The position numbers were made by a program, and so were the translations under genes. From positions 1 through 64,000 of IMG/VR virus record IMGVR_UViG_3300006735_000027: a DNA stretch of 64,000 nt. One strand, written 5' to 3'. Positions 2 to 61,724 of the stretch are shown here, in pieces. Each line of letters opens with the position of its first letter. Within the stretch, counting starts at the first letter, position 1. The notes below the pieces were generated by a model that saw only the letters and a list, made by a program, of their open reading frames with translations, ran no database searches and was not told where the DNA came from. Source of the stretch: a virus.

Positions 2-1063
2 CAGATTGCGGGGCGCCTCAACGAGCGCGAGGCACTCGCCTTCTGGTCGAGGGCGACAGGAGAGCGCCCACCCATTCCCGTGAAACGATTCCTACAGATG
101 GTTTCCTACCTGACGGCAGCAGGTGCACAGAGCCTGCAAGCCATCGACGCCATGCTCTACACCATGCGCCCCGGCGAGGTCATGCAGCGACTGCTGGCCG
201 AGAAGCCGGACTTGGAGGTGCGCACCATGCAGCCCGGACAGCCTTTCACTGGTCCGGTCTATAGAGCGTGGGACAAGATGACGGCGCCGACCGACGTCTA
301 CGCCGAGGTCATGTCGAACCCACGCCGATACCTGCACGTCACCGAGTTCCCCACAGGGACCTTCCGAGGCGTTCTGTACAGCAGGGACAAGCAGGCCATG
401 GGCAAGCCCGTGGACCTGCCCTACGCAGAGCAGGAGTGTATCATGGAGGTCGAGACCGACGGCATTACCGTCACGCACGTCACCGACCTCCTCGCTCTGG
501 GCGACGACTGGGACATCCATCGTCAGCCCTACAGGGAACGCATCGACGTGCTCCGCACACTCAATCTACAGGTCCCTCTCAAAGAGGGCAAGTTCGTGGC
601 CTCGGGCACCGACTTCACTCACCTGCTCGAAACCATCGAGCCCGCTGAGAAACTGCGCCTCGTTCACACGGAGGGCATCAAGGTCGGCGGCGATGGTGGC
701 TGGGCGATTCTCAAGGACGCCTTCCACGTTCAACTGCTGGCCAACTCAATTATGCGCGACGCTGATTACGACACTTTCGTGCGACTGGGAGCCCTCGACG
801 GCTTCGAGGTCTACGAAGTTGGACAGGTCAAGTTAAGTGCCGCCGTGGCTCAGCACGTGCGTCAGCGCCTTGCTCAGCAGGGTGTTTTGGTTGGACAGGA
901 TTGGCTCCCCATCGACGAGTACGGCTTGGTTGTCGTGCTTGAGGTGAAGGGGTTCTCCCTGAGCGACCTGTCCCTGACGGAGGGAGACGTGCGATACCTT
1001 GACGACAATCTCGGTTATTCGGACGTGTCCCAACTCACGGACCTGATTGAAATGAGCGACTGA
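2..1063 (+). CDS. ATP-dependent DNA ligase-like protein, probably inactive (5' partial)
   Basis: The frame is open from base 2, so the N-terminus lies outside the window; the first internal start is a GTG at 80. Numbered from that GTG, the protein has the layout of an ATP-dependent DNA ligase: a motif-I-like segment TEFPTGTFRG, a motif IIIa-like segment VTDLLALGDDWDIHRQPY followed by RERIDVL, a motif IV-like HTEGIKVG, a motif V-like GWAILKD, then an OB-fold-like tail ending near EGDVRYLDDNLGYSD. In active ligases motif I reads KxDGxR; here the aligned residues are F-P-T-G-T-F, so the nucleotide-accepting lysine and the aspartate appear lost, and motif IV has G where K is expected. I infer a ligase-fold protein that may bind DNA or nucleotide without ligating. 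It could instead be an unrelated hypothetical protein. It is the first gene of the replication block. Confidence 0.4.
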   Translation, partial: QIAGRLNEREALAFWSRATGERPPIPVKRFLQMVSYLTAAGAQSLQAIDAMLYTMRPGEVMQRLLAEKPDLEVRTMQPGQPFTGPVYRAWDKMTAPTDVYAEVMSNPRRYLHVTEFPTGTFRGVLYSRDKQAMGKPVDLPYAEQECIMEVETDGITVTHVTDLLALGDDWDIHRQPYRERIDVLRTLNLQVPLKEGKFVASGTDFTHLLETIEPAEKLRLVHTEGIKVGGDGGWAILKDAFHVQLLANSIMRDADYDTFVRLGALDGFEVYEVGQVKLSAAVAQHVRQRLAQQGVLVGQDWLPIDEYGLVVVLEVKGFSLSDLSLTEGDVRYLDDNLGYSDVSQLTDLIEMSD

Positions 1064-1110: not shown

Positions 1111-2043
1111 ATGAACCTACGAGAGAAGTACCGTCCGTCCACTCTGGACGACTTGGTTGGATGCGAGGAGTTCCTTGCTGCAGCCAAGGGCTGGGACATC
1201 GACACGTGTCCCCCCAACATTCTCATCGTGGGTCCGCCCGGCATCGGCAAGACCAGCGCTGCTCTGGCTCTGGTGCGAACCATGCAGGGGGAGTTCTTCG
1301 ACCCCTGCAACTACGGTATCACCAACGCCTCTGACGAGCGCGGCATTGACTTCATCCGTGCCCTCAAAGGCATAAGCCGACAGAAGGGCATGGGCGTCAG
1401 TCGCCGTGCTGAAATCCTCGACGAGTGTGAGAACTTCACGTCACCTGCTCAGAAGGCCCTGCGCCAGATTCTGGAAGAGAGTCACCGCACCACGGTGTTC
1501 ATCCTCATCGCAAACGACATCGGTCCGATTCACAGCGCTATCCGTGACCGCTGCATCACGTTCTACTTCAAGCCCCTATCCGATTCCTCGGACACCGTTG
1601 ACCGCCTGAGTCACATCGTCCGCACCGAGGGCATGCCAGAGGACTGGCACCCTCATCTCGGCGCCTTGGTGCGCCACACCAACGGCAGCATGCGTAAGGC
1701 CATCGACATCCTCGACAGCCTACCCAAGGACAGTGAAGCACTCTCCGTCCGCTTGCGCCGAGACACCAGCCATCTCAACAAGGCTGCCCTGAATCTCATG
1801 GGCAGCGATTTCCCTGCAGTGACCCGCCTGCTAACGCAGGCCCTGAACGGAGGGCAGTCACGCTTCGGCGTGCTGCGTGGTCTGCGACATCGCGTGCGTC
1901 CGCTCATGGAGAGCGAAGACGACTGGCACGCATTCATGCTCACGTATGGCGAGTTCGCCCTTCTGGCCCCTGTGTGGCCGGATGACGACCTCTCCTACGT
2001 GGAATACTTCGTAGCAAAAATGAAGAAGAACATGGAGGCATAA
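1111..2043 (+). CDS. rfcS: Clamp loader, replication factor C small subunit
   Basis: A 310-residue AAA+ ATPase, close to the usual length of archaeal RFC small subunits (about 320). It opens the ring-shaped sliding clamp and loads it on primed DNA. Seen: the REKYRP...LDDLVG box at residues 4-16, Walker A GPPGIGKT at 41-48, Walker B ILDECE at 102-107, sensor 1 around LIAND, an SRC-like arginine motif (here IRDRC, with D for S), and a helical C-terminal collar domain. The start ATG follows a purine-rich leader. The clamp and polymerase are encoded a few genes downstream. No large RFC subunit is visible, so this protein either works as a homo-oligomer or borrows the host subunit (inference). Confidence 0.9.
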   Translation: MNLREKYRPSTLDDLVGCEEFLAAAKGWDIDTCPPNILIVGPPGIGKTSAALALVRTMQGEFFDPCNYGITNASDERGIDFIRALKGISRQKGMGVSRRAEILDECENFTSPAQKALRQILEESHRTTVFILIANDIGPIHSAIRDRCITFYFKPLSDSSDTVDRLSHIVRTEGMPEDWHPHLGALVRHTNGSMRKAIDILDSLPKDSEALSVRLRRDTSHLNKAALNLMGSDFPAVTRLLTQALNGGQSRFGVLRGLRHRVRPLMESEDDWHAFMLTYGEFALLAPVWPDDDLSYVEYFVAKMKKNMEA

Positions 2044-32300: not shown

Positions 32301-35300
32301 GGTTCCAAGAGTGAGCCGTGTGCGTTGCGTCGATGTGCAACTTCATGCTGTTGTCTGGGCCGGGGAAGATGCCGCGCTCCGCGTTGTCGAAGAAGAAATC
32401 CTCAAAGAGCGGAATCTCGACCAGTGCGCGTGTACTTGCGTATTGCGTGCCCAACTGATAGTCGTGTTGGACTGTGTCGAGAGTCTGGAACAAGCGGTCA
32501 TTGATGGTCGTCCCATCGTTGCACATGGTCTCTTCGCTGAACTTGTCGTCGAGGTGAATGACGCTCCCTGCGGTAATTGACGTCGCCGTAATCCACGCTG
32601 CCAGAGAATCGGCTTCAGACCCATCCGCAAGAACGAATTTATCTGTTCCAAGGTGCCCGGTGCCGGAAGCAAACGTGAACGTCGTCCCGGTCTTGCTGGT
32701 GTATTCAGCACTGGCAAACTCAATGCCTTCACCTTGGTTTGTCGCCAACTGCAGGTAAATCCGACCAACCTTCGGGAAGCAGTAAGTTCCCCATGATTGC
32801 AGGTCATCCGCCTTGTTGTTGAGGGGGAGCACCACGACAGTCGTACTGCTCGTCGAACTGACCACGGCTTGGCAATCGCGTCGCGTGTTCCAAGCGAGGC
32901 GACCCAGAGGGCTGGGGTCCCACGTCTCCTTGGTGTTGACCGCACCTTGTCCGCCACCCCCAAGCATCATGGTGATGACCGGCGCCCCCGGCATGATTTC
33001 CTTCACGATGTGTGAGTCGGGTGCCGCTGAACCCTTGACGCTCACACTGGATGATGCGAGGTCACCGATGACGCCATGCGCACGCATAACGGTTTGACCA
33101 TCATCATCGTCAGAGAAAGAAACAACTCGTCCACGTGCCACGAGACTTTCAATGGTCACCGTGTTACTGCTGTCTGTACCCGTGAGCATTTTGCTCAACA
33201 TGTTGAGACGTGCTCGGTCGCTGGGCTGGACAATCAAACGGGTCTTCTTACCCTTCGTTGTGTGCTCGATGATGTCGAAAAACTCGTGCACGCACGAACT
33301 CTGATTGACTGTGCCGCGCCCAACCATCTGCGGTTGGGTGAACAGTTCGTCGTTGTCGACCAGAGCATCGCTGGTTCCGCCACCAATCGTCACAGAGGTG
33401 GACGTGACGGCGGTGACTTTGCCCAAGTTCTTGCCGTTTGACTTGTACAGAATGTCGTTGACGGCAATGACTGTGGTCGCATCTACACCATCAACAGTCA
33501 TGGCAGAGGAAGTCGAAGAAGAGTAGCCTGAGCCGTTGTTAATGCGTACACCCGTGCGGGGGCGAGCACCGTTGGTCGCTTTCCTGACGCTGAAGCCGCC
33601 CGTGTCCTCAAAGCCAACGCTGTCGGTCTCATCTGCTCGAACGAGTAACCGGTGGAAGATAGAGCCGCGCGATTGCAGGTCGGCGTTGGCTACAGCGATG
33701 GCCTGCGGCGTGGTCTGCACGGGGTCGCTGGACGTCAGAGGTAGGTAGTTCTCTGGGCAAAGAGAGCGGTCCAGAACGCTCTCTGCCACGGTGCCTTCCG
33801 CGTGCTCGCCCTCCAGTTCGCCGTCTTCGAACACAAACATGTCTGGAGTCTCAAACTCGATGATGCCGCCGGGTGCAACGAGTTCCAAGTCTTCGATGGC
33901 CATGGAATCACGGATGAGGTCAAGAATCGAGTAGCCACTTGCCAACTCTGTAGCGACATCAGGCAGCGTTTTCGTCACCATCAACTTTGGAGAGTTGTCT
34001 GCTTTTTGCACGATGGCGCCGGTCACGGCCAACGTGACGAAACTGGATTGCGCTGCTGCTGAAAGCGTGAGCGTCTTCGCTGAATGGTTGATGATTGCAG
34101 TGACGCCTGCAGTCGTAGAGGCGACGACACCGCCGATGCTGATGCCCGACGCCGGAATGCTTTGTCCGTCGTAGCCGAACGACTTGGCGCTCTGAAGCGT
34201 CAAGACCTTGTTCGCCCCGCTGATGCCTGTGGTCAGTCGACTCGTAGCCCCAACAGTGAACTGAGAGCCCTCGAAGTCAATAGCGTCGTAGTGAATCTGT
34301 ACGAAGGGGGCGTAACTGTACGACCTTAGGCGTGGCAGGGAGAGCGTGGCGATGCGAGCCTCGGACGAGGGCACCATGAACTTGGTATCGCCGGTCTCTT
34401 GATTGCCGGAAACCGCCTTGAGCATGAACGGTGCTGGGTCAAAATTTGAGCCACCAATGGCGAGAATTGCACGCTTCGAGTCCGCAATGTCGGACATGCC
34501 GTTTTCAACAAGAGTGTTGACTCCCCCTGCAGCGACTACCGACCGAACGGTCATTGGCCCATGCGTGTCGAAAGAGGACACAACGCTGTTCATCGGGACC
34601 GTCGAGCGGATGTCTGAGAACTGACTGGGGAAGGAAGCCGAAATCACATCGCTGCTGATGTCCAACTTTTTCTCGACTTCGTGGGTGCTGGTAGGTGGCA
34701 GCGTGCCCATGAACGGATGACTGACCACATGGTTGAGCGTGTGCCTTCCACTGTGCCCCGCGACAAACTTGGAACCCATGTTGGTCGTGCTGGCAGAGAA
34801 CTTGTTGTACTCATGGTCGTCAATCGCCATGCTCTGAGAGAACATGATGCCGCTGTGCTCGAAGTCACTTTCGTCAATGATGACCTGACTCTGTCTTTGG
34901 GAAAACTGCGTGCCGCTACCGTAGGGCTGGAACTCGTTGCCCTCACCTGTGTCGACAATGCAGTCACCAGTGATGATGACGAAGCGACCTGCGTCGTGAG
35001 CCATGAGCGCTCCACGACGACCAGTGCTGGCGTTGGACGCGAAGTCGAGATGGATGGACTCGACGGTGATAGTTCCCGCACTGGCGTCAATCGCCATCAG
35101 GCGCAGACGCTCAGGTGCCTTGTTCGTGGGCTTCCCTGTCGTCTGGCTGTAAGCCAATGGGTTGACCAAGATGTTGTACGGCACCTTTGGGATTGAAACA
35201 TCCGAAGAAGAGGAAGCGGAGTAGACAGTGACTTTGTACGAGCCACCGCTGTAAGGGCTGGCTGTGAAGTCCAGCGACGTCAGCCCGCTCTGACCGCTCA

Positions 35301-47646: not shown

Positions 47647-48774
47647 TCACTTGAGGTCGCGGATGCTCCCCTGTCCACCGAAGAAGGTGGTCCAGACTTC
47701 GCCCATGGTGCGGTACAGGCCTTCCTGACCGAGCCGGTTGATGGCGAAGGGGTCGCCCGTCTCAATGCCGGACTCGAAGTACTGAGTCGGCTTGGCGGTG
47801 CTGAAGTAGAGGTAGTCCGTGTCCATCATGTAGATGCGGCTGATGCCGTCACTGGCCATTTCCTTGGTGGGGATGATGGGGACACCGTTGTAGGTCGCCA
47901 CGATGAACCCGGCTTCGATACCGGGGACACCCTTGACGCCGTTGTAGGTGGGAACCACACGCTTCTCTTCCATGAAGCGCTGTTGCGCCTGCAGGAGTTG
48001 CTGGATGCGCATGAGGGTGTCGTACCCGGTCAGCATGACCTTGGGGTTGCCACCGCGCTCCCAAATGAGGCGGAAGAGTTCGTCAAGGTGGTCGAGGCTC
48101 AGAGTCCGGTTGGTGGAACTTGAGTCAGCGGAGTCCTCGGCGAAGGACCACGTGTTGGCGCTGCGGTCGATGGAGTAGAGGTCCTCGTCGTTGGTGTCGT
48201 AGTGCGTACCGGAGGTCATCGAGTTGTTGCCCGTGGTGATGCGGTCGAGCGACTCAATGTCGTTGCCCGCAACCGTGGTGACGTCCTCGGTGAGCATGTC
48301 GTTGATGTGCTCTGCGTGGTGCTTGCCCATTTCCTCCTTGAGGACTGAGCGGATGTCGCCCAGACCGTCGTCCTTGTCGTTGAGGAAGATGGCCGTCTCC
48401 GACATGTCGAAGGAGTGAGCCACAGTCTTGGGCTTTGCAGCCACGTTCTGGAACGTTGGCTTGGTGGTGTCCGGCAGAGTGCCGTTCTCAGCGATGCCGC
48501 CGCCAACAACCTTGGAAGGCTTAGCGGTGACGACGCGCCATCCACTGCGGTCCCAAGGCTTCTTGGGAAGGATGGAGAAGGCGTTGAACTCTTGGTTCAA
48601 CTGGCTCCAGACCTTGCGGCCGTAGATGGCTTGGTAGGTACCAGCCGTGGTGCTGAGGAGCGGAGCGTCCGCCTTCAGCAACTCACTGCCGGAGTAGGAG
48701 TAGCCCATCGAGGACCCTGCCCCGTAGTAGTACCGCTCCATGTCGTTGACTGTTCGCATGTAGTTTCGTGCCAT
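47647..48774 (-). CDS. Major capsid protein, HK97 fold
   Basis: The protein has 375 residues and directly follows the prohead protease gene, with GGAGG before the ATG. Expected elements are seen: a helical N-terminal arm, an A-domain core (KVMLTGYDTLMRIQQLL, GFIVATYNGVPII, SRIYMMDTDYLYF), a spine-helix region (GLGDIRSVLKEEMGKHHAEH) and a C-terminal strand (PTQYFESGIETGDPF, YRTMGEVWTTFF). The N-terminal delta domain of HK97 is not fused here; scaffolding appears to come from the protease gene instead. It forms the icosahedral shell. Confidence 0.85.
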   Translation of the reverse strand: MARNYMRTVNDMERYYYGAGSSMGYSYSGSELLKADAPLLSTTAGTYQAIYGRKVWSQLNQEFNAFSILPKKPWDRSGWRVVTAKPSKVVGGGIAENGTLPDTTKPTFQNVAAKPKTVAHSFDMSETAIFLNDKDDGLGDIRSVLKEEMGKHHAEHINDMLTEDVTTVAGNDIESLDRITTGNNSMTSGTHYDTNDEDLYSIDRSANTWSFAEDSADSSSTNRTLSLDHLDELFRLIWERGGNPKVMLTGYDTLMRIQQLLQAQQRFMEEKRVVPTYNGVKGVPGIEAGFIVATYNGVPIIPTKEMASDGISRIYMMDTDYLYFSTAKPTQYFESGIETGDPFAINRLGQEGLYRTMGEVWTTFFGGQGSIRDLK

Positions 48775-48809: not shown

Positions 48810-50210
48810 TCAAGCCTCGAAGACGCTCCCGGCGAGGCGGTGAACCTCGTCCCAACCCATGTTGGCGAGGTCCTGAGTAGACGGGACCTCGACCGTGGTA
48901 ACCGACTTGCGGATGGCCGGAGCCTCAGCAGCGGTGGAGCCGATGTTGTCGATGCGGGTGCTGAGGTCGCTCAGCGCCTTTTCGATGTTTGCCAGTGGGG
49001 TGCGAGCGTCGAAGGAAGATGCGGCGCGCGCCTCAGCCTCAGCGTTCATTTCCTTGGCGAGGCGGTCAGCGAAGACCTGTCCGAGGTTGCCCTTGAACTG
49101 CTCTTCGATGGCCGCAGCCTTGTAGACTTCGTAAGCGGCTTCGAGGTCAGAAGCGCTGACGTCAGCCGGAGCGAGGTAGCCCTTGGAGACTTCGCCGCTA
49201 CCGCCGGAGTTCAACTTTCCAACGGCGTTGGTGGAAGGGGAGCCGCTTTCTTGGGCACGTCCCTTGACCTGACCAGCGAAGTATTCGGCACCGTCACCAA
49301 TGGCCTCGGGCGTGGAGCCGAGGTTGGCCTTGGAGATGTCGTCAAAGTGAGCGCGAGCCGCCATGGTGTCGACGCCCTGAGACTTCAGAGTGTCCTCCAT
49401 CCACGAGAGGTACTCGCTGGAGATGACGTCACTGTATTCGCCCTTGGCCATATCGCCGTGAGCCATCTTGTGAGCGCCGCCGTACATGCCTTCCTTCTTG
49501 TCCTCGCTCGCCATTTCCTTGCCTTCGTCTTCTTCGGACTCAGGCTTGTCCTTTTTCTTGCCTTCCATGTGCTCTTTCAAGCCTTCAGGCATTCCCTTTT
49601 CCATGGCATCAAGTCGCCCGTTCAGCCGGTCAAGCACGCCGGAAAGGTCGTTCAGTACGTTGTCTTCGTTCGTCATTGTGGTGTCCTCCTTCAAAATTCG
49701 GAATGTGGCCTCAGGATTGATGCCTTTCTCGCAAATGGTCACTTCGTGTAGTTCCAACTTCGAGATTTCGGTGTAATCACCGTGACTGGCGTCGCTCTTG
49801 CGCATGCGCTTGAACGCCTGTCCCCCGATGCTGAAGCCACGAAGAGCCCCCTTGCGAATTTCAGACGCGACTTCGCGCGCCTTCTCAATGTCGTCGCGCA
49901 ACTGAATGACGACAAACATGCCGGCGTCGTCGACACCGGACTTCCAAACACGGCCATCTGAGTCCACGTAGGAGGGGATGACCTTTCCAACTTGAATGTT
50001 GGAGTGAGCGAGTTGCACGTTGCGGAAACCATCCGCCTTCATGAAGCCGTCAAAGGCGTCACGGAGAGCGCCGCGGGTGATGAGGTCACCCTGCTTGTCC
50101 ACCATTTCGACAGACGCGTAGCCAGCGATGACGAGGTCATCGGCCGCCTTGAGGATGCTGATGCTCCCGCCGTGGTTGACGGCGGAGGTCCTCAGCGCGG
50201 CGGTGGCCAT
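48810..50210 (-). CDS. HK97-type prohead protease fused to scaffold region
   Basis: Residues 1-175 match the HK97 prohead protease (peptidase family U35): VIAGYASVEMVDKQGDLITR, catalytic-type VQLAHS (H69), VGKVIPSYVDSDG, and KGALRGFSIGG (S127), then a strand LHEVTICEKGINPEA. Residues about 180-466 are charged and helical (GKKKDKPESEEDEGKEMASE, FADRLAKEMNAEAEARA, DLSTRIDNIG), typical of a scaffold that is later degraded. The C-terminal peptide MGWDEVHRLAGSV resembles one in the gene at 56411-56782. The protease domain is expected to cleave the fusion and possibly other head proteins. The gene sits right before the capsid gene. Confidence 0.85.
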   Translation of the reverse strand: MATAALRTSAVNHGGSISILKAADDLVIAGYASVEMVDKQGDLITRGALRDAFDGFMKADGFRNVQLAHSNIQVGKVIPSYVDSDGRVWKSGVDDAGMFVVIQLRDDIEKAREVASEIRKGALRGFSIGGQAFKRMRKSDASHGDYTEISKLELHEVTICEKGINPEATFRILKEDTTMTNEDNVLNDLSGVLDRLNGRLDAMEKGMPEGLKEHMEGKKKDKPESEEDEGKEMASEDKKEGMYGGAHKMAHGDMAKGEYSDVISSEYLSWMEDTLKSQGVDTMAARAHFDDISKANLGSTPEAIGDGAEYFAGQVKGRAQESGSPSTNAVGKLNSGGSGEVSKGYLAPADVSASDLEAAYEVYKAAAIEEQFKGNLGQVFADRLAKEMNAEAEARAASSFDARTPLANIEKALSDLSTRIDNIGSTAAEAPAIRKSVTTVEVPSTQDLANMGWDEVHRLAGSVFEA

Positions 50211-50241: not shown

Positions 50242-53200
50242 CTACCTACGAAGGACGGCCTTGTCTTCTGTGATGTCCAAAACACCTGCTTCTGTAGGCA
50301 CGCTCATGCGCTTGGGAGGCTCGGAGTCTTCCGATTCTTCTTCAATGTCTTCGTCTTCTCCGGGGCGCTTTCGGTTGTCGTAGTCGGGCATGGTCTTCTC
50401 ATCGTGGAGATTGGTCGGACCCATGGGTGATTCGATGGGTGTTGCGTAGTCAAAGCCCAGACCCTTCGCACCTGCGTTGGCTGCGCCTACAGCACCAATG
50501 CTACTCTTGAGAAAGCGGTCGACAAGTTCCAGACCTTTGACGAGCACCTTGGCCTTCTGACGATTGTCCCACCAAGAAGTGTCCTTGACCTTCTTGGGTT
50601 CAATGAGAGGTTCAGCCTCCTCTTCGGATTCATGCACCTCCTCTTTGATTTCAAGGTTAGCCTTGAGCAAAGCGCCTGCTACCGGTCCCCAGTAAGGTCG
50701 CTGACTTTCAGACAGGCGAATGATGTAGCGGTTGTCGGCCAAGGGACTATGCAGCGTCCACATGCCACCAGATTCTGTCGCCTTATAGAGCACGTCGCCT
50801 TGCGGCATGACGACACGAACGCCTGTGCTGGCTCGCTCGACTTCGCAAAGCCACTGCGGTCCGACTGACTTCGCCAGAAGACCCAGCGTTTCGCGGCTGA
50901 CCAGAGGCTCGCCCTCGGCCTCACCTTCAATCTCAGAGCCCATGATGGTGAACACTGGGTCTTCGACTGAGTTCTCAACACGACTGACGTTGGCGACGTT
51001 GACGCGAACGTGGTCACCTTCGTTGAACTTCTCAGGACTGTTGAACGCTGCGCCCACATCCATGTAGGTGTCGCCGTCGGCCTCGACCGCGCGGCTGCCA
51101 ATGGCCTCTTCACGTGTAATAGGGCCAGTGCCGAGACGGTACGTGTAGGGACCTACACCCCGTCGCTCAAGCACACGGAGCACCACGTCTTGGCCGGGAC
51201 GTAGCATGACCCACTTGGGATGACGCATCTCACCAGCCATGTAGACCGACTTCGCGTCTCGGAGCAGAATGTTCTCATGGTCTTTCTGCAACGACTCAAC
51301 GGCCAACTTCAGACCCTCGTCGTCGGTTAGGCGTGTGTCGCTGGCGCTCGGCGTGTGAATGTTGTCGATACCTTCCATGCCGCCACGTAGAATTTTGATG
51401 CGGTCGTTGAGGGGTACGTCGTGAACTTCCTTGCCGGCAAACTCAAGCACGTCGAAGATGTAGTAGCCGTCTTCCAACTTGACGACGTCCGCTTTGTACT
51501 CGTGGTCGGTGACCTTCTGAAAGTTCTCTTTGTCCTCGTCGGACAGCGAGAACGTCGACGTGATGTCGTCGTCATCGTCCTTCTCAACAAAGCCTCGCTC
51601 GCCTTCCGGCATGTGCGAAACAATCCAGTCACCTGTGAAACCGCGCAGATGCTCCAAGTCTTCCAACTTGAAAATGCGGTGCATCGGCTGGAGCAAGGGG
51701 ACTTTCGGACCCAACTCTTTGCGGATGATGTCTGGGTTGGTCAGGTCGGCCAGCCCCAACTCAGACTTCACCGAGTTCGTGCTCCCCTGATTGCGTGCAA
51801 GCCCTGTCGACGTCGGCTTCGTGTGAGCAGCCTGTCGCTCAAGCGTGTTGAGTGCTGTACGAGCACCGGCGTGGTCAGGATGCTTCAGCATGTGCATCCA
51901 TGCGGCAGGGGCGACGGCATTCCAAATGGTTTCCGTGGGTTGGACAAGACGCATGGGGATGCCCTGCGCACTCGGCATAATGCTGACCTCGCCGTCGAAT
52001 CCGATGCGGAAATTGAAGTTCGGATGGAACAGGTCGCCGTATTCGTGCGCCAAGCCCGAGGAGTTGTACAGACTGTGGACTGAGTGCCCATGCGGACCCG
52101 CTGCATCGACCGGCACGGGTGCTCTACCGCGCTTCGTTTCCGTGACCGACGAAGCCGCCTCGACTTCGGGCAGGAAGGTGACGAGGCTGTCGAGATGCTG
52201 CTTGGTGTTCCAATACTTGCGCTCGCGCTGGTTGCCGCCGCCAGCAGGCTTCTTGGTCAGAGGTTCGTATTCACTGCGCCGTGAGTCCGCGTTATACGCT
52301 TGCGTGAACTGCATACCCAATTGCTGGTTGCGCTCATCTGCCTGATAGCCGATGGTGCGGTGAACGCGACCGACATCCAGTTGCACGTCCATAGCAGCGC
52401 GCTGCTTCTTCATCTTCTCAGCCTCGGCAGCGATGTCGCGGTCAGGGTGCAGTTTCTCCATCAACTGGCGCACGGACATCACAGGCGCAGGCGGCAGACC
52501 CGCACTCATTCGTGGAATGATGACCTCTTGCAGGTAGTCGCTTGCCAACTTCGTATCGTGAGGAGAGTTGGCGTCGAGACCAAGATGCTGGAGCATATTG
52601 TTGAACGTCTCTCCTACGTCTGCCATGGGGTCAAACTCGAACGGCTCTCCGTGCTCATGCCCAAGGCTCTTGATTTCATGACCAAGGCCAGCGTGACGCT
52701 TCTGTCCCACCTCATGCTCGGTCGTACCCATGGTGTGGATGCCGTGCGTTCCGTGAGGAGCGGCGTGAAGGAACTCGTTGCCCATGCGAGCCAGCATGCG
52801 CATGTTGGCCTCGACCGTTTCGTGAGGCAAGTTGGGGTTGAGGATGTGGTCCCGCGTTTCGGGGTCCATGCGGTCAACAATGTGCCGCACGGCTTGACCG
52901 ATGGCGTGGTCGTCAGCACGGAGCCGGTCGGCGAGGACGTTGCGTTTTCGATGAGCCTGACCTGCTTTGGGACTGAGTGTAGCAGTCACCTGAGAACCAG
53001 TCTCAGACAGCCCTGTTTCGAGGCGAGCCAACTCCTCGTTGAGTTCGGACATCTGGTCGCGGTAAGCCTGAAGTTGACTTCGCGTCGCACCTTCGCTCTG
53101 AGCCTGAGCCATCTCATTCTGCAGCGCTCCGACACGCTCAGCGAGCATGAAGTAACGCTCTTGGTCTTCGGTCGCAGGCTGAGCCTCGCTGATGCGTGGC

Positions 53201-55989
53201 TCCAACTCACCGGAAGGAGCGGTGCCTGCAGGGAAATTGACGCCGTAGTTGACCATCACGTTAGTATCGGGGTCGTCGTCCAGAGGCGCCTCGCCAAAGC
53301 GGTACATGCGGCGCTCGTGAGTCGAGTGCAATCGCTCTTTGCGACGAGCGTATTCTTCTTCCAACTCTTGCTGGCGACCTTCAGGAGCGACGCGCATGCG
53401 CTGCTCAAACTCAGCGTCCAGTGCCGCCAATTCGCGTGCAAGGTCTGCGGAGGCAGGTGGCTCATCCCGATGCTGCAACTCCTCCATCTGCGCGTCGTGG
53501 TCCGCCAGACTGGACGTAAGGCGACCGCGGTCATCGGTCAAATGAAAGACGTGCTGCTGCGGGTCCATGGGGGCACGAGCAAAGCCCATCATGGTCGCAA
53601 TGGCATGATGATGCTGACTGTGATGCTTGTCGAACGTCTCCTCGTTGTAGGCACCACCTGCAACACCGAAGGGGTTCTGCCCAGTCAAGTGCTCTGATTC
53701 TTTCCCAGTTCTGCGTTGATGAGCCAATTCCGCAGCCTCCCTGTCGCCAGATTCACGGGCATCATGGTATTCACGCGCCAACGTGTTGTGGTATGCACCG
53801 TCAACCGTGGTCGCGTGGCGGTTATAGTGTGCGTTTTGGCCACCTGAGCCCTTGATGCGCGACGACACGGACACGTTGTGCGGGTTCATGGTCGAGCCCG
53901 CGTCAGCATAAGTCGGCTCCCCTCTTGGGTCTGAATCTGCGGTACCTTGCCCTACATTTTGAACAGTGACCAACTTTTTACCCTGCATCATGCGGAACAG
54001 TTGCGCTTCGCGCTGACCAAACGGCCCGATGAAGGGGACCATCGAGGCCCCGTCATCTTCGTGACGTGTCCTAATACCAGTGCGTGTGCGTGAAAACATC
54101 AGGCTGTCTTCTTGCTTTCCGCGAAGCCCAGCAACGCCAGTTCGCGCTTCGACAGGGTTGAACTGTGTCGTGGTCTGAGGCACCAACTCTTCACCATAGA
54201 ACTCGGCCAGCGCCTTCGCCTCTTCGTCGGGAGGGAGTTCAACTTCTTCTGAATCGAACAACTTCGTGTGATGGTGAAGCAGGTTGAACAGTTCGTTGGG
54301 GCGCTTACCCATACCGCCACGCATCCATGGCTTTTTCCAGAACGTGGCCAACGTCGTGTGGTCGCCGTTCGCATAGCCGTAGTGTTCCGGGTCAACATGC
54401 GTGCCGAAATGGAAGATACCGTGGTTAGTCGCCATGCGAGAGGCAGCCGCGACCTCCTTGGCTGATTCTTCACGAGTGCGGAAGATTTCGTCAATCTCGT
54501 CTTGCGTGAACACCTTGTCGGGTCGACTGTGAAACATACCGCCGCCCAGTCCCAAGTAATGTGGTGCGCCGGCCGGCAAAAGTTTCCGAGTTTCTGGGTC
54601 CACACCCAACATCGCAGCCATCACCAAGTAGGAAGGTGCAACGCCCGGCTCCATGCTTCCATCGGCTCTTTTTCGAGGTTCCGTCGAGCGGTGAGTGACG
54701 CTGACGGTGCCATCAGTATGCTGTGTGATGTGAGGTGTTTGACTGGTAAGAAGCAGGTCCTTAGGTTGCAGTTGATAGCCGTTCAATCGAGCATCCTCCT
54801 GCAAACGCAAGTTGTACTCCTTGACGGCACGCTCCCAAGCATTACCTTCCTTACCTGCTGTGCTATGGTTCCTCATGGCGCTGAGCCCGTGCACCTTCTC
54901 GACGTACTCAGCCTTCTCAGGTAGGCGGATGGGTCGATTCATCACAGGCTCAGTTGGCATGCCGACCGGACGCACCCAGTGGTCGTAAAGTCCAGAAAAG
55001 CGTTGGTGAAAGTTGCGAACAAAGCGAGGTATCAGATTGGCCCCGTTGGCTATACCGGGGACACTGAACGGCTTCTGTGATTTGGAAGCACCGTGTTCGC
55101 GCAAGTGCTCGTAGAAATCGTGCCGCTGCTCAGGCGTCAGCCACTCAAGCCCCATGAGGTAGTCCATCAGACCAAAATCCTGTGACCACTCAGCCTTGCG
55201 CTGATTCATGTGAGCATCACGCTTCGCTTGCTCGCCCTGCTGCACCGTGAGTTCGCCACGACCGACAGCGTCGTCAATTTGACTGGACGCTTCTTGCCCT
55301 TGACCTCTCGACCATTTCAGGTAGTTCTCGTCGTAGAGACCATGGTTGGTTGCGTATTCAGTGTCCAGTTCACCGTAGTGGTGAGGCTTGAGCATGAAGC
55401 GGTGGTCACCTTCACGGGCATGCGTTTCCCAATCGGCCTCACGCGCACTGTCGTGTTCGCTTTGACCGCTGCTGTAAAAGTCCGCGACATGCTCGTGGTA
55501 GCGGTCGTGCAGTGGGTTGAACTGTGCGGAGCCCAACGGGTCGTGCGTTCGGTAGGGGTCCTCGGCGTTGCCGTCGACCATCTCAAACCCACGACCAGTA
55601 AGCGATTGACCGGGCTCAGGAGGGACGACGCGCATTTCGTCATAGGACGGGTTGTCGGCCAAGCCCATGCCGGCACCGTGACTCAGCGCATAACCGACTT
55701 GCGACTGCGCAAGGCCAGAGCCCACCATGGGACCTGCTTCAGCCTCAGCCTCCAGACTCACCGCGCCCTGTGTGCCAGTGGTCTGGGATTCGTCTTCCTT
55801 GCGGATGACGGCGTGGAACATCTTGACGAGTGCATCATCGCCAGCGTCGAGGAGGTAGCCGTGGCGCTCTGCGTTCACGACTGCGAGGAAGAAGTCTGCG
55901 CCGGCATCGGCCTTCCCAATGCCGTCGAGCAGTGAGGCGGTGAAGGTCTGCCTTGCCCTGTCGAGGGAATCGAGGGGACCGTCTCGCAT
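50242..55989 (-). CDS. Large head-module protein (1915 aa) with degenerate ligase-like domain
   Basis: A His-rich N-terminal 900 residues (HHSQHHHAIATMMGF) of no recognised family is followed by a coiled coil at about 870-1000 (LARELAALDAEFEQRM, LEEEYARRKERL). About residues 1435-1705 look like an ATP-dependent DNA ligase: HLRGFTGDWIVS in the motif-I position, YYIFDVLEFAGKEVHDVPL then RIKILR (motif IIIa), ENILLRDA (motif IV-like), KWVMLRP (motif V), and an OB-like part with VVLRVLER and HVRVNVANVSRVEN. No KxDG lysine is present. The C-terminus is acidic and basic low complexity. Located between the scaffold gene and small head genes, it may be an internal head protein or injected protein. Confidence 0.6.
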   Translation of the reverse strand: MRDGPLDSLDRARQTFTASLLDGIGKADAGADFFLAVVNAERHGYLLDAGDDALVKMFHAVIRKEDESQTTGTQGAVSLEAEAEAGPMVGSGLAQSQVGYALSHGAGMGLADNPSYDEMRVVPPEPGQSLTGRGFEMVDGNAEDPYRTHDPLGSAQFNPLHDRYHEHVADFYSSGQSEHDSAREADWETHAREGDHRFMLKPHHYGELDTEYATNHGLYDENYLKWSRGQGQEASSQIDDAVGRGELTVQQGEQAKRDAHMNQRKAEWSQDFGLMDYLMGLEWLTPEQRHDFYEHLREHGASKSQKPFSVPGIANGANLIPRFVRNFHQRFSGLYDHWVRPVGMPTEPVMNRPIRLPEKAEYVEKVHGLSAMRNHSTAGKEGNAWERAVKEYNLRLQEDARLNGYQLQPKDLLLTSQTPHITQHTDGTVSVTHRSTEPRKRADGSMEPGVAPSYLVMAAMLGVDPETRKLLPAGAPHYLGLGGGMFHSRPDKVFTQDEIDEIFRTREESAKEVAAASRMATNHGIFHFGTHVDPEHYGYANGDHTTLATFWKKPWMRGGMGKRPNELFNLLHHHTKLFDSEEVELPPDEEAKALAEFYGEELVPQTTTQFNPVEARTGVAGLRGKQEDSLMFSRTRTGIRTRHEDDGASMVPFIGPFGQREAQLFRMMQGKKLVTVQNVGQGTADSDPRGEPTYADAGSTMNPHNVSVSSRIKGSGGQNAHYNRHATTVDGAYHNTLAREYHDARESGDREAAELAHQRRTGKESEHLTGQNPFGVAGGAYNEETFDKHHSQHHHAIATMMGFARAPMDPQQHVFHLTDDRGRLTSSLADHDAQMEELQHRDEPPASADLARELAALDAEFEQRMRVAPEGRQQELEEEYARRKERLHSTHERRMYRFGEAPLDDDPDTNVMVNYGVNFPAGTAPSGELEPRISEAQPATEDQERYFMLAERVGALQNEMAQAQSEGATRSQLQAYRDQMSELNEELARLETGLSETGSQVTATLSPKAGQAHRKRNVLADRLRADDHAIGQAVRHIVDRMDPETRDHILNPNLPHETVEANMRMLARMGNEFLHAAPHGTHGIHTMGTTEHEVGQKRHAGLGHEIKSLGHEHGEPFEFDPMADVGETFNNMLQHLGLDANSPHDTKLASDYLQEVIIPRMSAGLPPAPVMSVRQLMEKLHPDRDIAAEAEKMKKQRAAMDVQLDVGRVHRTIGYQADERNQQLGMQFTQAYNADSRRSEYEPLTKKPAGGGNQRERKYWNTKQHLDSLVTFLPEVEAASSVTETKRGRAPVPVDAAGPHGHSVHSLYNSSGLAHEYGDLFHPNFNFRIGFDGEVSIMPSAQGIPMRLVQPTETIWNAVAPAAWMHMLKHPDHAGARTALNTLERQAAHTKPTSTGLARNQGSTNSVKSELGLADLTNPDIIRKELGPKVPLLQPMHRIFKLEDLEHLRGFTGDWIVSHMPEGERGFVEKDDDDDITSTFSLSDEDKENFQKVTDHEYKADVVKLEDGYYIFDVLEFAGKEVHDVPLNDRIKILRGGMEGIDNIHTPSASDTRLTDDEGLKLAVESLQKDHENILLRDAKSVYMAGEMRHPKWVMLRPGQDVVLRVLERRGVGPYTYRLGTGPITREEAIGSRAVEADGDTYMDVGAAFNSPEKFNEGDHVRVNVANVSRVENSVEDPVFTIMGSEIEGEAEGEPLVSRETLGLLAKSVGPQWLCEVERASTGVRVVMPQGDVLYKATESGGMWTLHSPLADNRYIIRLSESQRPYWGPVAGALLKANLEIKEEVHESEEEAEPLIEPKKVKDTSWWDNRQKAKVLVKGLELVDRFLKSSIGAVGAANAGAKGLGFDYATPIESPMGPTNLHDEKTMPDYDNRKRPGEDEDIEEESEDSEPPKRMSVPTEAGVLDITEDKAVLRR

Positions 55990-57173: not shown

Positions 57174-58910
57174 TCAAGCCCCCCGAGGACGGCGAGCGTC
57201 AAGGATGCTCTGGCCAGCCTGTTCGACGCCTCCCATAGGGGCGCCTCGTTGCTGAACACTGGAGAAGGGAGCGCCCGCACCCATGCTGGTGCGGTTCTGT
57301 GGACTGGCGGGACCGCGGTTCCTCAGACCGAAGCCCTCGCCGCCGGGGTTAGCCGCGCCGGGGACCTGTGCTTGACGACCCATCTGAGCAGCGAGTTGCG
57401 GCGGAATGTTCCGACCGGGCAAGGCTCCGGGCGTGCCCATGCCTCCACCCATTTGCATACCACCCATGGGCTGACCCTGCGGCGGTGGCTGTGCGCCCGG
57501 CTCAGGTTGCTTGTAGATGAAGCGAATGTCTCGGCTGGCATCTTCGACCAGCGTGGGCTGATAACCCATCATCATCATGCGCTGCGCGATGTTGACTTCC
57601 ATCTCATCGCGCCGTAGGCGTGTGACCTCGTCCTCTTCTTCGTTGGGATAGAGGCTCAACTTCCAATCGCTGACGTCCATCTGTTCAACCATGCGCGGGA
57701 AAAGATGCTCGGTGTAGACCTTGTGACCAAACTCAACTGCACGGTTGGTCACCAGAATCTGCATACCTTCGTTGTTCAGGCCGCCGGACTTGCCGGTGTC
57801 CATCATGAACACGTTCGACACACCGTAGAATGCGGCGATGCGCTGGCGCATCTCATCGCGTGCAGGGATGTACTGCATCTCCTCCAGAGAATCCATCAAC
57901 TTGACCCAGTTCACGCCACCCTTACCATTACCTTCCGTAGCAATCTTAGGGATGTAGTGCGGGTCGCGCTCCAACTTCTCATCCGTCGCCTTCCAAAACG
58001 ACTTCATGGATTCAAGGTTTTCCGTGGTGATGCTCAAGATTCCACGAGGAATGCGACGCTTCGAGTAGGCCGTGTACATGTAATTGTCCATGGCGGTCAA
58101 CGTCATGGCTTGTCGCCAGAGCGTTGAGACAGGGCTTCGGCCGTAGAGTTTCGACGGCTGGTACTTGCTGACGTGGATGACTTCGCCTTTGAGGTAGTAT
58201 TGCGTTTTGCCACTCCCAGCCGTGTTGACGTGATGCACGTCTTCCATCTCAGTGCCACACGTCGGGCAGAATTTGTCGTTCTCGGAATACGCCTTGACCT
58301 CGGTGCGGTGAATGGGGCAAACCCGGAAACGCCCGCCACGAACACCGCGCTTGTCGGCGATGATACGCATGAAGATAGGGTCGCCACGCACGACTTCTTT
58401 GATGCGATAGAAGGCCATTTCTTTCGTCTCAGGGTCCATGAAGTATTCTTTGATGAGGACGAGGAAAGCATCGTCGGTGATGTTGAGGTCGTACTCAATC
58501 TCACGCAGAACATCCATGAAAGTCTGTTCCATAGAGTTGCGTTGCTCAAGAAGCCAGCGAGCATAAACGAGTTGGTCGGGCTCAGGGTCACGCACTTCTC
58601 CACCACATTCGTTGCAGAGTTCAACGTCGTGCTGGTATTCTTTGTCGCATTCCGTACACTTCTTGTGAAACTTCTTCTCCCAACGGTAGCCACGGCGAAA
58701 GATTTCCTGCTGAAGCGTGCTAAGCACAGTGCGCAGGATGAGGTTTTCACTGGCCACGGCATACAGTGCAGGGATAGTGATACCTTGCACGAGGACAGGT
58801 TCTTGGATGCCTGTGGTCCACAGGGGCATCTGAGGCTCAGGCGTCGTCCTGCGACGGAACGGAGCACTCACAGATTCGAGCAAACGTCCGACACGACTCT
58901 TCTCCGCCAT
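57174..58910 (-). CDS. Portal protein with two zinc-ribbon inserts
   Basis: The start is ATG 58910, overlapping the previous stop as TGATG. The product has 578 residues. Portal features are the wing/stem pattern VVRGDPIFMRIIADK, the YLKGEVIHVSKYQPSKLYGRS segment leading into WRQAMTLTAMDNYMYTAYSK, and FYGVSNVFMMDTGKSGGLNN, typical of phage portals. Two Cys clusters are inserted: CTEC and CNEC (C85, C88, C99, C102), and CPIH with CPTC (C198, H201, C215, C218), each able to bind one zinc. The C-terminal 100 residues are Pro/Gly/Met/Gln-rich low complexity. It forms the dodecameric DNA gate; TerL is two genes upstream. Confidence 0.85.
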   Translation of the reverse strand: MAEKSRVGRLLESVSAPFRRRTTPEPQMPLWTTGIQEPVLVQGITIPALYAVASENLILRTVLSTLQQEIFRRGYRWEKKFHKKCTECDKEYQHDVELCNECGGEVRDPEPDQLVYARWLLEQRNSMEQTFMDVLREIEYDLNITDDAFLVLIKEYFMDPETKEMAFYRIKEVVRGDPIFMRIIADKRGVRGGRFRVCPIHRTEVKAYSENDKFCPTCGTEMEDVHHVNTAGSGKTQYYLKGEVIHVSKYQPSKLYGRSPVSTLWRQAMTLTAMDNYMYTAYSKRRIPRGILSITTENLESMKSFWKATDEKLERDPHYIPKIATEGNGKGGVNWVKLMDSLEEMQYIPARDEMRQRIAAFYGVSNVFMMDTGKSGGLNNEGMQILVTNRAVEFGHKVYTEHLFPRMVEQMDVSDWKLSLYPNEEEDEVTRLRRDEMEVNIAQRMMMMGYQPTLVEDASRDIRFIYKQPEPGAQPPPQGQPMGGMQMGGGMGTPGALPGRNIPPQLAAQMGRQAQVPGAANPGGEGFGLRNRGPASPQNRTSMGAGAPFSSVQQRGAPMGGVEQAGQSILDARRPRGA

Positions 58911-60217
58911 CACAGACCCTCCGCCCAACTCATGACCGTATCGCGGTCGACTCCCCATTCTCGCAACGAGTCCTCACCTTTGGCAGTTCCGTCTCGGTTC
59001 GAGAACTGCACAAGTCGCTTCAACTGCGTCTTTCGTACAGGGTTCTCTTCACGGATGTAAGCCTTCACTGCCTTCGCCTGCATGTCTTTCATACGCAGAT
59101 GAGGGGTGATGCCGTCCAACAACTTGTGCAAGTCGTCCTTTGCGTAGAACGACACGCGGTGCTGACTCCGTTGAGTGTCCGAGTAGACCTTCTGGTCCAG
59201 TTGCAGAATGCCGGCTCCAATGTTCTTGTGCAACTGTTCGCAGTGCATGCGCCCTCGGTCGCCCGTAGCGATGAAGCCAGCGCGCGGCTCACCGCGCTCG
59301 GTAATGGTGATGTAACCGTCAGCGTCGAGGAAGCCCGCAGCGTAGGCCCAAGGGTCCTTCAGAATGAGGCCCTCTCGCGTCATGGAGATGAACTCTCCTC
59401 GGCGATGACCCTTGACGATGTTGACTTCCTCACCATACATGTTGAGCAACTTGGACAAGCGACCGGCCGTGATGCGACTGACGCCCTTCTCGACGAGGTT
59501 GCTGGTAATGGCACGAGCCGTCATAGCACCTTTCTCGTCAATCTCAGCCTTAGCCATCTGCATCCACTTCTGCTGCTCTTTGGTCAAGGAGTCAAACTGG
59601 TGCAGCGCTGTGCGCCACATTTTGCGAGCGTCCTGCTTTTGCTGCATAGCGCCGACCCACGCCTGCCGCTCTTCTTCACCCCAAACGTCAGCGAACTCGT
59701 CCAATTTTTCTAACGCATCCTCAGCCGCTTCCCAAACGTTGCAGGCTCGCACGAGACTGGACTTACGGGTGTTGCCGAACAAGCGCAGCGAGCGCAAGTC
59801 CTTGTTGGACAGCCCCATCTTACGCATGGTATCTGCGTGCGGTCCAGCCCAGTCGAAGAGGCTCAGCGTCGCTTCGACCTCCGTTCCTTTGAGAGTGCGA
59901 ATCCCGTGAATCAGTGCATCAATCTCTTCCTTGTCGTCTTTCAACACGCGACGCGCTTTACGCAAATCTCGGATAATGGACGACGCACTCTTACCGATGC
60001 GGTCCTCGAACCAACCTTCGCCAGTTGGTGAAAAGGGAGCATACTGCGGCGCTGGTGCGGGCTCTCCTGTGACGATGACGGTCTCAGATGCAATCGACTT
60101 GGCGATGTCGCCGTCGACCAGAGGGTGCGCGGTCAAACTGGATGCGATGGTCGACAAGAGGTCATGGCCCATGTCGATGTGCTGGGTTGGACCCCCTACG
60201 CTCAGACTTGGCCACAT
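58910..60217 (-). CDS. Winged-helix plus LAGLIDADG-like protein between TerL and portal
   Basis: The protein has 435 residues. Residues 70-230 are helical and charged. About 230-285 look like a winged helix (TARAITSNLVEKGVSRITAG, RLSKLLNMYGEEVN). Residues 291-300 read AYAAGFLDAD and continue GYITITERGE, a good LAGLIDADG homing-endonuclease-type motif with the acidic residue at the helix end; the following HRVSFYAKDDLHKLLDGITP and QAKAVKAYI resemble the rest of that fold. Only one motif is visible, so dimerisation would be needed for cutting. There are no intein splice blocks. Its place suggests a role in packaging, such as a small-terminase-like DNA recognition factor, or a domesticated or parasitic endonuclease. 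Confidence 0.6.
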   Translation of the reverse strand: MWPSLSVGGPTQHIDMGHDLLSTIASSLTAHPLVDGDIAKSIASETVIVTGEPAPAPQYAPFSPTGEGWFEDRIGKSASSIIRDLRKARRVLKDDKEEIDALIHGIRTLKGTEVEATLSLFDWAGPHADTMRKMGLSNKDLRSLRLFGNTRKSSLVRACNVWEAAEDALEKLDEFADVWGEEERQAWVGAMQQKQDARKMWRTALHQFDSLTKEQQKWMQMAKAEIDEKGAMTARAITSNLVEKGVSRITAGRLSKLLNMYGEEVNIVKGHRRGEFISMTREGLILKDPWAYAAGFLDADGYITITERGEPRAGFIATGDRGRMHCEQLHKNIGAGILQLDQKVYSDTQRSQHRVSFYAKDDLHKLLDGITPHLRMKDMQAKAVKAYIREENPVRKTQLKRLVQFSNRDGTAKGEDSLREWGVDRDTVMSWAEGL

Positions 60218-60239: not shown

Positions 60240-60247
60240 CTATAGTC
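60240..60247 (-). promoter_or_regulatory. Candidate TATA element upstream of the winged-helix/LAGLIDADG gene
   Basis: ACTATAGT lies directly after the TerL stop, about 25 bases before the ATG at 60217, in one of the few gaps of the late block. It is palindromic and may be chance; GAGGG near the ATG also offers ordinary translation initiation. Confidence 0.2.
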
Positions 60248-61724
60248 ATACCGTGAACCACGCACCCGCAACCCTGCGAGAAGGAGCATCGCCGAACCAG
60301 TCGTCAACTCCGTCGAGGTAATCGTCGAGCATCACGATGCTACCCTTGAACTCCTTGGTCGCCCAGTTGGCCAGTGCGAGGCTGACGGCCAAGTCGTCGT
60401 GCGAGCCCACGGACTCCATGCGCCCGTTCTTCTGCATGCCGAATCGGCTCAGTTCTGTTTCAAGCGTGCGCGTGAATTCTTTGCTTCGCTCGTCACCCCA
60501 CGGGGTCTTGATGTGGCCCTGCTCGAAAGCCATGAGCAGCGACATGAACATGCTCTCTTTCTTCTGACGCGTCGTCATGAACGTCTTGACGGGAATGTCC
60601 TCGCGCATGTCGCGCAACTCTGCCTCGAACATGCGTTGGAAGTTGTTGCCTTCCAACTCGATGAGGTCGGGCTGGAAGCGGTTGTTGAGCATGATGATGT
60701 GACGCTTCTGCGCCGTGCTGTTCAGCCCCTTCTGATGAACGACGTGCACGACTTCTTTCCGCTCGCTGCCCGGAGGCATGCGCATGACGGTCATGGCCGT
60801 GTAGTCAGCGTTCGAGTCGCTGGCGATGGCGGGGTCCCAGCCGATGAAGTGCTGACCAAACAAGCCGCTGGCTTCGCCTTCCTCGTCGTATTCGTTCTCT
60901 GCTCTGTCCATCAAGAACAGTTCTGAGTCGCGCGCCTTCTCCAGCAGCGTCATCGGGAACATGCTCGACATGTCGTGAATCGGCTCACATAGATACTCAC
61001 GTGCAAACTTGATGGCAGGCATGGACTCCTCACGCTGTTTGAGGGCATCAAGCGGCCATCGGTTTGGCCAGAGCGGCTCGCCGTTGGGCATAATCGCTGG
61101 ATAGGTCTCGACGGTGAACGTGTCTTTGTCCTCCAACTCAGCATACAGGTCATTGTACGAGAACGGGGTGCCGACCATCATCAGTCGGCCTGTGTGGTGC
61201 AGCACAGGGAGCAGAACGGTGTAGAACCAGTCGGCCGCACGCTGCAGTTCAGAACTGGTCGTGCCCCACAGAATGTCGTCGCAGACGACCACGTCGGGGT
61301 GGAACCCACGGGTTGCACCGCCCACGGACTTGGCCATGATACGGCTGCCGTTGGTGAACTCGAAGTAGGACTTGGCCCACGGCTTGCCCGCAGGCTTCAG
61401 GCCCTTGAGGATGTCCGAGGACTCAATGTTGTTGCGGATGAACCGCATGTGTTCCAGCGTCTGCTCCAGCGAGTGGGAGAAAATCATGACGTGTGTGTTG
61501 GGCTTGAACGCCGCCAACCAGAGTGCGTAGGACATGAAGAACACGGACTTGCCGTGGTCACGGCTCGCTTTCACGCAGTAGTAGCGGTGTTCGTTCAAGC
61601 CCTTGAGCCAATCCTCGTGATGGTCGGACAACTCGAACTCCAGAATGTCCGTGAAGAAGTATGCGAAGGACTTCTTGGACATCTGCGTGTCCATGTCGTG
61701 AATGAGGTTGTTGACGTCAGCCAC
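60246..61724 (-). CDS. terL: Large terminase subunit (TerL)
   Basis: The protein has 492 residues. ATPase: Walker A ASRDHGKS at 53-60, Walker B VVVCDD (D149, D150), a coupling-type strand RLMMVGTPFS. Nuclease (RNase H fold): IGWDPAIASDSNADYTA, DLIELEGN and GSHDDLAVSLALA supply the metal-binding acids. It packages DNA into proheads through the portal and cuts the concatemer. The C-terminal tail DDYLDGVDDWFG is acidic. No separate small terminase is obvious; the upstream and downstream proteins are candidates. Confidence 0.93.
   Translation of the reverse strand: MADVNNLIHDMDTQMSKKSFAYFFTDILEFELSDHHEDWLKGLNEHRYYCVKASRDHGKSVFFMSYALWLAAFKPNTHVMIFSHSLEQTLEHMRFIRNNIESSDILKGLKPAGKPWAKSYFEFTNGSRIMAKSVGGATRGFHPDVVVCDDILWGTTSSELQRAADWFYTVLLPVLHHTGRLMMVGTPFSYNDLYAELEDKDTFTVETYPAIMPNGEPLWPNRWPLDALKQREESMPAIKFAREYLCEPIHDMSSMFPMTLLEKARDSELFLMDRAENEYDEEGEASGLFGQHFIGWDPAIASDSNADYTAMTVMRMPPGSERKEVVHVVHQKGLNSTAQKRHIIMLNNRFQPDLIELEGNNFQRMFEAELRDMREDIPVKTFMTTRQKKESMFMSLLMAFEQGHIKTPWGDERSKEFTRTLETELSRFGMQKNGRMESVGSHDDLAVSLALANWATKEFKGSIVMLDDYLDGVDDWFGDAPSRRVAGAWFTV

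What the first reader, a model, noticed from the sequence alone, without database searches (positions are those of the whole stretch)
50900..51690. A second degenerate ligase-like domain inside a head-module protein
The 1915-residue protein contains a clear motif IIIa (FDVLEFAGKEVHDVPLNDR), a WVMLRP motif V and an OB-like tail, and its motif I region (GFTGDW) again lacks KxDG. A nucleotidyltransferase fold in a protein encoded between scaffold and portal genes is unexpected. With the first copy at the left end of the window, the virus seems to carry two repurposed ligase folds, possibly for DNA-end handling in the head or at injection.
Basis: partly seen in the sequence, partly recalled or inferred. 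Interest (0 to 1): 0.7.

Follow-up and report, generated by a model that had tools for sequence, protein, structure and literature searches.

The report
Dead ligase domain in virus head protein
A large protein encoded among the capsid genes of a group of marine archaeal viruses carries a strictly conserved copy of the DNA-ligase fold that has lost the residues needed for ligation, so it probably serves as a binding module rather than an enzyme; the same viruses carry a second dead ligase among their replication genes and show no intact one.

Summary
Residues ~1412-1700 of the 1915-aa protein (window 50890-51756, minus strand) form a nucleotidyltransferase plus OB unit of the ATP-dependent DNA ligase superfamily. 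Pfam PF01068 matches above its cut-off, and all 16 divergent relatives tested match. The AlphaFold2 model retrieves DNA ligases at E ~1e-8. In 61 distinct sequences the nucleophilic lysine is never present (52 Met, 5 Tyr, 3 Phe, 1 Leu); motif III Glu, motif IV Lys and first motif V Lys are also gone. Yet the domain is the best-conserved part of the protein (dN/dS 0.025 versus 0.18 for the N-terminal part).

Gene order TerL-x-portal-3 small genes-this gene-protease-MCP holds in every relative long enough to show it. The left-end protein (2-1063) is also a ligase fold: a full-length relative models as a three-domain ligase, motif I Lys replaced by I/V/M/L. Eight 90-109 kb relatives carry both and no detectable intact ligase. 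Gene content suggests a magrovirus-like virus of marine archaea. Best reading: a pseudo-ligase used as a nucleic-acid- or partner-binding module of a head-associated, possibly ejected, protein. Fold and inactivity are well supported; the role is inferred.

The parts
50242..55989 (-). 1915-aa head-module protein that carries the pseudo-ligase domain
   Evidence: relatives of ~1600-2000 aa in complete loci
51820..55989 (-). N-terminal ~1390 residues: fast evolving, no recognised domain
   Evidence: whole proteins 27-51% identical across relatives with the differences concentrated here; dN/dS 0.18 vs 0.025; no Pfam or convincing PDB match
50890..51756 (-). pseudo-ligase unit, residues ~1412-1700 (nucleotidyltransferase + OB fold)
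   Evidence: Pfam; AF2 model; Foldseek PDB and BFVD; alignments
   Evidence: F, D and W invariant in 61/61 sequences (the sequences were collected with a pattern that includes this motif, but A1 and A3, gathered without it, also show it invariant)
51595..51612 (-). true motif I position, MPEGER (1460-1465): Lys replaced by Met; Gly and Arg kept
   Evidence: alignment to 2hiv, secondary structure, one search counts
51481..51492 (-). motif III position (A-D-V-V, 1500-1503): catalytic Glu replaced by I/V/F
   Evidence: placement inferred from spacing to motif IIIa
51400..51456 (-). motif IIIa, FDVLEFAGKEVHDVPLNDR (1512-1530)
51259..51276 (-). motif IV position (ENILLR, 1572-1577): Lys replaced by invariant Arg; Glu not conserved
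51196..51216 (-). motif V position (KWVMLRP, 1592-1598): first Lys lost in all, second variable
50890..51192 (-). OB-fold part with invariant TYRLGTGP and YMDxG (1600-1700)
   Evidence: strands; conservation
50245..50889 (-). conserved C-terminal extension (1701-1915), unknown fold
   Evidence: conserved; no PDB sequence match
48810..50210 (-). prohead protease (S78/HK97 type), next gene downstream
   Evidence: synteny
47647..48774 (-). major capsid protein
57174..58958 (-). portal protein, related to the HVTV-1 portal
60246..61724 (-). terminase large subunit
2..1063 (+). second pseudo-ligase, cut by the contig end; relatives are ~485 aa with an N-terminal helical domain, next to the clamp loader
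1111..2043 (+). clamp loader subunit, neighbour of the second pseudo-ligase

Best explanation
The conserved C-terminal ~500 residues of this head-module protein carry a nucleotidyltransferase-OB unit descended from an ATP-dependent DNA ligase that has lost its chemistry. Shown: homology and predicted fold; substitution of the motif I lysine in every sequence together with other catalytic residues; strong purifying selection; fixed position between portal and prohead protease. Inferred: it is a structural or minor head protein, or one ejected with the genome, in which the dead ligase fold works as a binding clamp. The clamp would sit on duplex DNA (a nick or end near the portal) or on a viral or host replication partner, with the invariant GFTGDW, RLGTGP and YMDVG patches as the likely contact surface. 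The same viruses use a second dead ligase beside the clamp loader.
For: PF01068 above cut-off and in 16/16 relatives. Foldseek: the 50 PDB matches listed are DNA ligases (including LigD) and one mRNA capping enzyme, E 1.4e-8 to 5.5e-7; the viral library likewise, including the HGTV-1 ligase. Profile-profile match to phage ligases, hhalign E 1.6e-7, probability 93.9. No Lys at motif I in 61 distinct sequences; motif III Glu, motif IV Lys and first motif V Lys also absent. dN/dS 0.025 for the domain vs 0.18 for the N-terminal part of the same gene. Synteny TerL-x-portal-3 genes-giant-protease-MCP in all loci that extend far enough. The same slot in the related haloarchaeal virus HVTV-1 holds a MuF-like head protein and a 1313-aa protein with zeta-kinase and ADP-ribosyltransferase domains; large multidomain head-gene proteins predicted to be ejected into the host are a described class (PMC5512222).
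Against: No virion proteomics for any relative was available, so packaging is untested. The AF2 model is of moderate confidence (mean pLDDT 60.7, pTM 0.43) and query-normalised TM-scores to ligases are 0.33-0.45. Motif I placement rests on a weak alignment (6.1 bits) plus strand topology. The domain is acidic (net -17 in 1410-1600, -10 in 1600-1700), which does not favour a DNA-gripping surface, although most proteins of this virus are acidic.
Confidence: 0.55

Rival explanations
1. Assembly factor only: the protein is a scaffold-like or minor head component, and the ligase fold is a protein-protein docking platform (for portal, protease or capsid) with no nucleic-acid role.
For: Directly upstream of protease and capsid genes in every relative; acidic domain; catalytic residues gone; the conserved core includes a C-terminal extension of unknown fold.
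Against: A nucleic-acid enzyme fold would be an unusual choice for pure protein docking; the OB part and the motif I Gly and Arg are kept.
Confidence: 0.25
2. Ejected decoy or effector: the domain mimics a ligase to occupy the host clamp, repair factors or a host defence protein early in infection.
For: HVTV-1 carries zeta-kinase and ART domains in the same slot; ejected multidomain proteins are a described class in phages (PMC5512222); large, fast-evolving N-terminal part.
Against: The ligase domain itself is slow-evolving and of one type across the family, unlike swapped effector domains; no sequence similarity of the protein to HVTV-1 gp113 or gp115.
Confidence: 0.11
3. Active but unconventional nucleotidyltransferase using another nucleophile.
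For: Very strong conservation of GFTGDW, motif I Gly/Arg, RLGTGP and YMDxG could reflect a remodelled active site; pseudoenzymes with migrated catalytic residues are described (PMC10211241, abstract).
Against: Loss affects motif I Lys, motif III Glu, motif IV Lys and Glu, and the first motif V Lys at once.
Confidence: 0.06
4. Artefact: no real ligase homology, only AF2 or profile noise.
For: Moderate model confidence; single-sequence PDB matches are weak (best E 0.011).
Against: Agreement of Pfam in 16/16 members, NCBIfam, hhalign and fold search in two libraries.
Confidence: 0.03

Closest known systems
ATP-dependent DNA ligase (PF01068 / TIGR00574; archaeal and LIG1/3/4 type)
   Same: Nucleotidyltransferase plus OB architecture, motif IIIa, the Trp before motif V, order of motif positions
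   Different: Nucleophilic Lys and other catalytic residues replaced in all relatives; embedded in a ~1900-aa head-module protein; no N-terminal DNA-binding domain recognised in front of it
HVTV-1 (Druskaviridae) genes 113-115 between portal and protease
   Same: Same genomic slot in a virus with a related portal (29% identity, E 1e-54)
   Different: Separate genes with MuF, zeta-kinase and ADP-ribosyltransferase domains; no ligase domain detected in that genome
Polyvalent / ejected head proteins of phages (PMC5512222)
   Same: Very large protein encoded in the head module, with an enzyme-type domain
   Different: No multiple effector domains recognised; a DNA ligase domain is not mentioned in that paper's main text (only RNA ligases); packaging untested
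DNA ligase IV in NHEJ (structural role; catalytically inactive Lig4 supports repair, PMC9638927, PMC10858965)
   Same: Precedent that a ligase can be useful without catalysis
   Different: There the inactive forms are laboratory mutants of an active enzyme; here inactivity is the natural, conserved state
Window 2-1063 family (second pseudo-ligase)
   Same: Ligase fold without the motif I Lys, in the same viruses
   Different: Three-domain ligase-like model, replication module next to the clamp loader; hhalign between the two families is not significant (probability 1%)

Membership tests
ATP-dependent DNA ligase | Nucleotidyltransferase domain homologous to PF01068 | tested here: met
   Above Pfam cut-off; 16/16 members match
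ATP-dependent DNA ligase | Two-domain NTase-OB fold | tested here: met
   Predicted only: model pLDDT 60.7, Foldseek E ~1e-8 across 300+ columns
ATP-dependent DNA ligase | Motif I KxDG with nucleophilic lysine | tested here: not met
   0 of 61 distinct sequences have Lys; M 52, Y 5, F 3, L 1
ATP-dependent DNA ligase | Motif III catalytic Glu | tested here: not met
   I/V/F in 61/61; column placement inferred
ATP-dependent DNA ligase | Motif IV Glu and Lys | tested here: not met
   Glu position variable (E 25 of 61), Lys position Arg in 61/61
ATP-dependent DNA ligase | Motif V lysines | tested here: not met
   First position M/L in 61/61; second position K in only 25 of 61
ATP-dependent DNA ligase | Nick-sealing activity | not testable with these tools
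   Needs purified protein
Magrovirales (viruses of marine group II archaea) | PolB, clamp loader, ERCC4 nuclease, chaperonin and Caudoviricetes head genes in two opposed modules | tested here: met
   against the descriptions
Magrovirales (viruses of marine group II archaea) | Clustering with a reference magrovirus genome | not testable with these tools
   ON649702 and OR863078 are not in the collections
Polyvalent / ejected head protein | Very large protein encoded in the head module | tested here: met
Polyvalent / ejected head protein | Several distinct effector or anti-defence domains in one polypeptide | tested here: not met
   Only PF01068 recognised; divergent domains could be missed
Polyvalent / ejected head protein | Packaged in the virion and ejected | not testable with these tools
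   No proteomics

The most novel reading that the evidence does not exclude
A lineage of marine archaeal tailed viruses has turned two ancestral DNA ligases into non-catalytic DNA-end or nick clamps, one for the replication fork (beside the clamp loader) and one for the genome end held in the head at the portal, and relies on the host ligase for sealing.
Probability: 0.15. Interest if true: 0.85.

Novelty: new variant of a known kind. Interest (0 to 1): 0.62.

Why it matters
A naturally dead DNA ligase kept under strong purifying selection inside a virus head-module protein was not found described in the literature searched. It makes the question of what holds or protects genome ends in archaeal tailed virions directly testable. 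It also shows an annotation trap: in 9 of the 31 virus records searched (the window's own, 5 of 21, 3 of 9) the domain passes Pfam's cut-off for an ATP-dependent DNA ligase, so published statements that nearly all magroviruses encode a DNA ligase may in part count this domain (inference; the reference genomes could not be read).

Tried and rejected
GFTGDW as motif I: rejected, MPEGER fits both the alignment and the strand pattern. A cellular relative: the single genome-contig hit (L136, Omnitrophota) has no suitable ORF and is chance. Homologues in the annotated phage collection by tblastn: none convincing for the domain or the whole protein (one search gave the ANMV-1 virus DNA ligase, but only at E 1). 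Similarity of the giant protein to HVTV-1 gp113 or gp115: none. The second pseudo-ligase by sequence alone: Pfam, PDB and NCBIfam silent, hhalign to phage ligases only E 0.001 at 20% probability; it became visible only through the structure model. NAD-dependent ligase in nine long relatives: none. Defence-system models: nothing. ON649702, OR863078 and two magrovirus papers (PMC5434244, PMC11706807) are not held.

Full report
What is there. The window is bases 1-64000 of a 73,142-base virus record. On the minus strand it reads TerL, a 435-aa gene, portal, three small genes, the 1915-aa gene, prohead protease, major capsid protein. On the plus strand lies a replication module with clamp loader, family B polymerase, PD-(D/E)XK nuclease, ERCC4 nuclease and a Cpn60/TCP-1 chaperonin. 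The portal's nearest annotated relatives are haloarchaeal Druskaviridae. This gene set fits published descriptions of magroviruses, the viruses of marine group II archaea (PMC10160649, PMC10768690, PMC12999244, PMC5332604), and PMC8651126 places Druskaviridae among marine archaeal viruses by capsid and portal trees. Assignment to Magrovirales is therefore likely but not proven, because the reference genomes are not in the collections.

The domain. Pfam's DNA ligase model matches residues 1489-1594 above its cut-off; seven NCBIfam ligase models match the same stretch but far below their full-length cut-offs. A search with the domain gave 37 IMG/VR loci, and with its alignment 76. All 16 divergent full-length relatives match PF01068. 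Profile-profile comparison with six phage ligases gives E 1.6e-7 at 93.9% probability. The AlphaFold2 model is of moderate confidence (pLDDT 60.7, pTM 0.43), yet the 50 Foldseek matches listed are DNA ligases and one mRNA capping enzyme, E 1.4e-8 to 5.5e-7, across 300 or more columns, covering the nucleotidyltransferase and OB parts. The viral structure library gives the same answer; its best entry, unnamed A0A516LT18 (E 3.7e-17, 20% identity), may be a true relative.

The catalytic residues. In the model this loop lies between strands 65-70 and 75-82 of the construct, as motif I does in ligases (established structural knowledge). In 61 distinct sequences this position is Met (52), Tyr (5), Phe (3) or Leu (1), never Lys, while the Gly and Arg of the motif are invariant. 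The motif III Glu position is I/V/F, the motif IV Lys position is always Arg, the motif IV Glu is not conserved, the first motif V Lys is M/L, and the second is Lys in only 25 of 61. A conventional lysyl-AMP mechanism is therefore excluded as far as sequence can tell. GF[T/S]GDW, TYRLGTGP and YMDxG are conserved instead.

Selection. Between the window and its near relative L065, dN/dS is 0.025 in the domain, 0.026 in the C-terminal extension and 0.18 in the N-terminal 1400 residues (simple Nei-Gojobori estimates, and more distant pairs are saturated at synonymous sites). The degenerate domain is thus among the most constrained parts of the protein, not a decaying relic.

Context. In every locus that extends far enough, the order TerL, 435-aa gene, portal, three small genes, giant, protease, MCP is kept. 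In HVTV-1 the interval between portal and protease holds a 1048-aa protein, a MuF-like head protein and a 1313-aa protein with zeta-kinase and ADP-ribosyltransferase domains. The giant protein has no sequence similarity to the two large ones, so this is an analogy of position only.

The second copy. The protein at 2-1063 is cut by the contig end. Its family (~485 aa) is found in 12 of 13 long relatives and 55 viral loci. Sequence methods find little, but the model of a full-length relative (pLDDT 68.4) retrieves S. solfataricus ligase and human LIG1 over more than 500 columns, E 1.4e-8 and 3.1e-8. The position expected for the motif I Lys is I/V/M/L in 29 distinct motif sequences (placement by eye). 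The two families show no significant similarity to each other, so they are probably separate acquisitions or very old paralogues.

No intact ligase seen. In eight records of 90-109 kb the only PF01068 match is the giant protein, and no NAD-dependent ligase is found. None of these records is known to be complete, and a highly divergent ligase could escape; the second pseudo-ligase itself escaped PF01068.

Interpretation. Shown by computation: ligase homology, loss of catalytic residues, constraint, fixed head-module position, a second dead ligase. Inferred: a binding function, and association with the head or ejection. Precedent for a ligase working structurally exists in DNA ligase IV, where catalytically inactive forms support end joining (PMC9638927, PMC10858965; titles and abstracts). 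The acidic charge of the domain argues mildly against a DNA clamp, but the polymerase and nuclease of this virus are acidic too, so it is not decisive.

Noticed in passing
2-1063: Second ligase-fold protein without the catalytic lysine, beside the clamp loader; core gene of the group (12 of 13 long relatives), invisible to Pfam.
   Followed up: yes
57177-58958: The portal protein shows weak zinc-ribbon matches at residues ~98-119 and ~224-242, below curated cut-offs.
   Followed up: no
20395-36120: A 5241-aa ORF on the minus strand in the presumed tail region, unusually long; not analysed.
   Followed up: no
13835-15322: Cpn60/TCP-1 chaperonin gene (430 bits), as described for viruses of marine group II archaea.
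   Followed up: partly
58913-60217: 435-aa gene between TerL and portal, conserved in the relatives, with only a weak HNH match in its C-terminal third.
   Followed up: partly
L041:21246-25184: HVTV-1 gp115 combines a zeta-toxin-type kinase and an ADP-ribosyltransferase domain in the same slot as the giant protein; neighbouring gp113 contains an HExxH-type motif (SHEMGHAFH).
   Followed up: partly
51820-55989: The N-terminal ~1390 residues of the giant protein are His-rich (5.8%) and free of cysteine, fast evolving, with different apparent start sites among relatives.
   Followed up: partly
outside the window: BFVD entry A0A516LT18: Unnamed viral protein of 827 aa whose model matches the domain far better (E 3.7e-17, 20% identity) than any ligase; possible further relative.
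   Followed up: no
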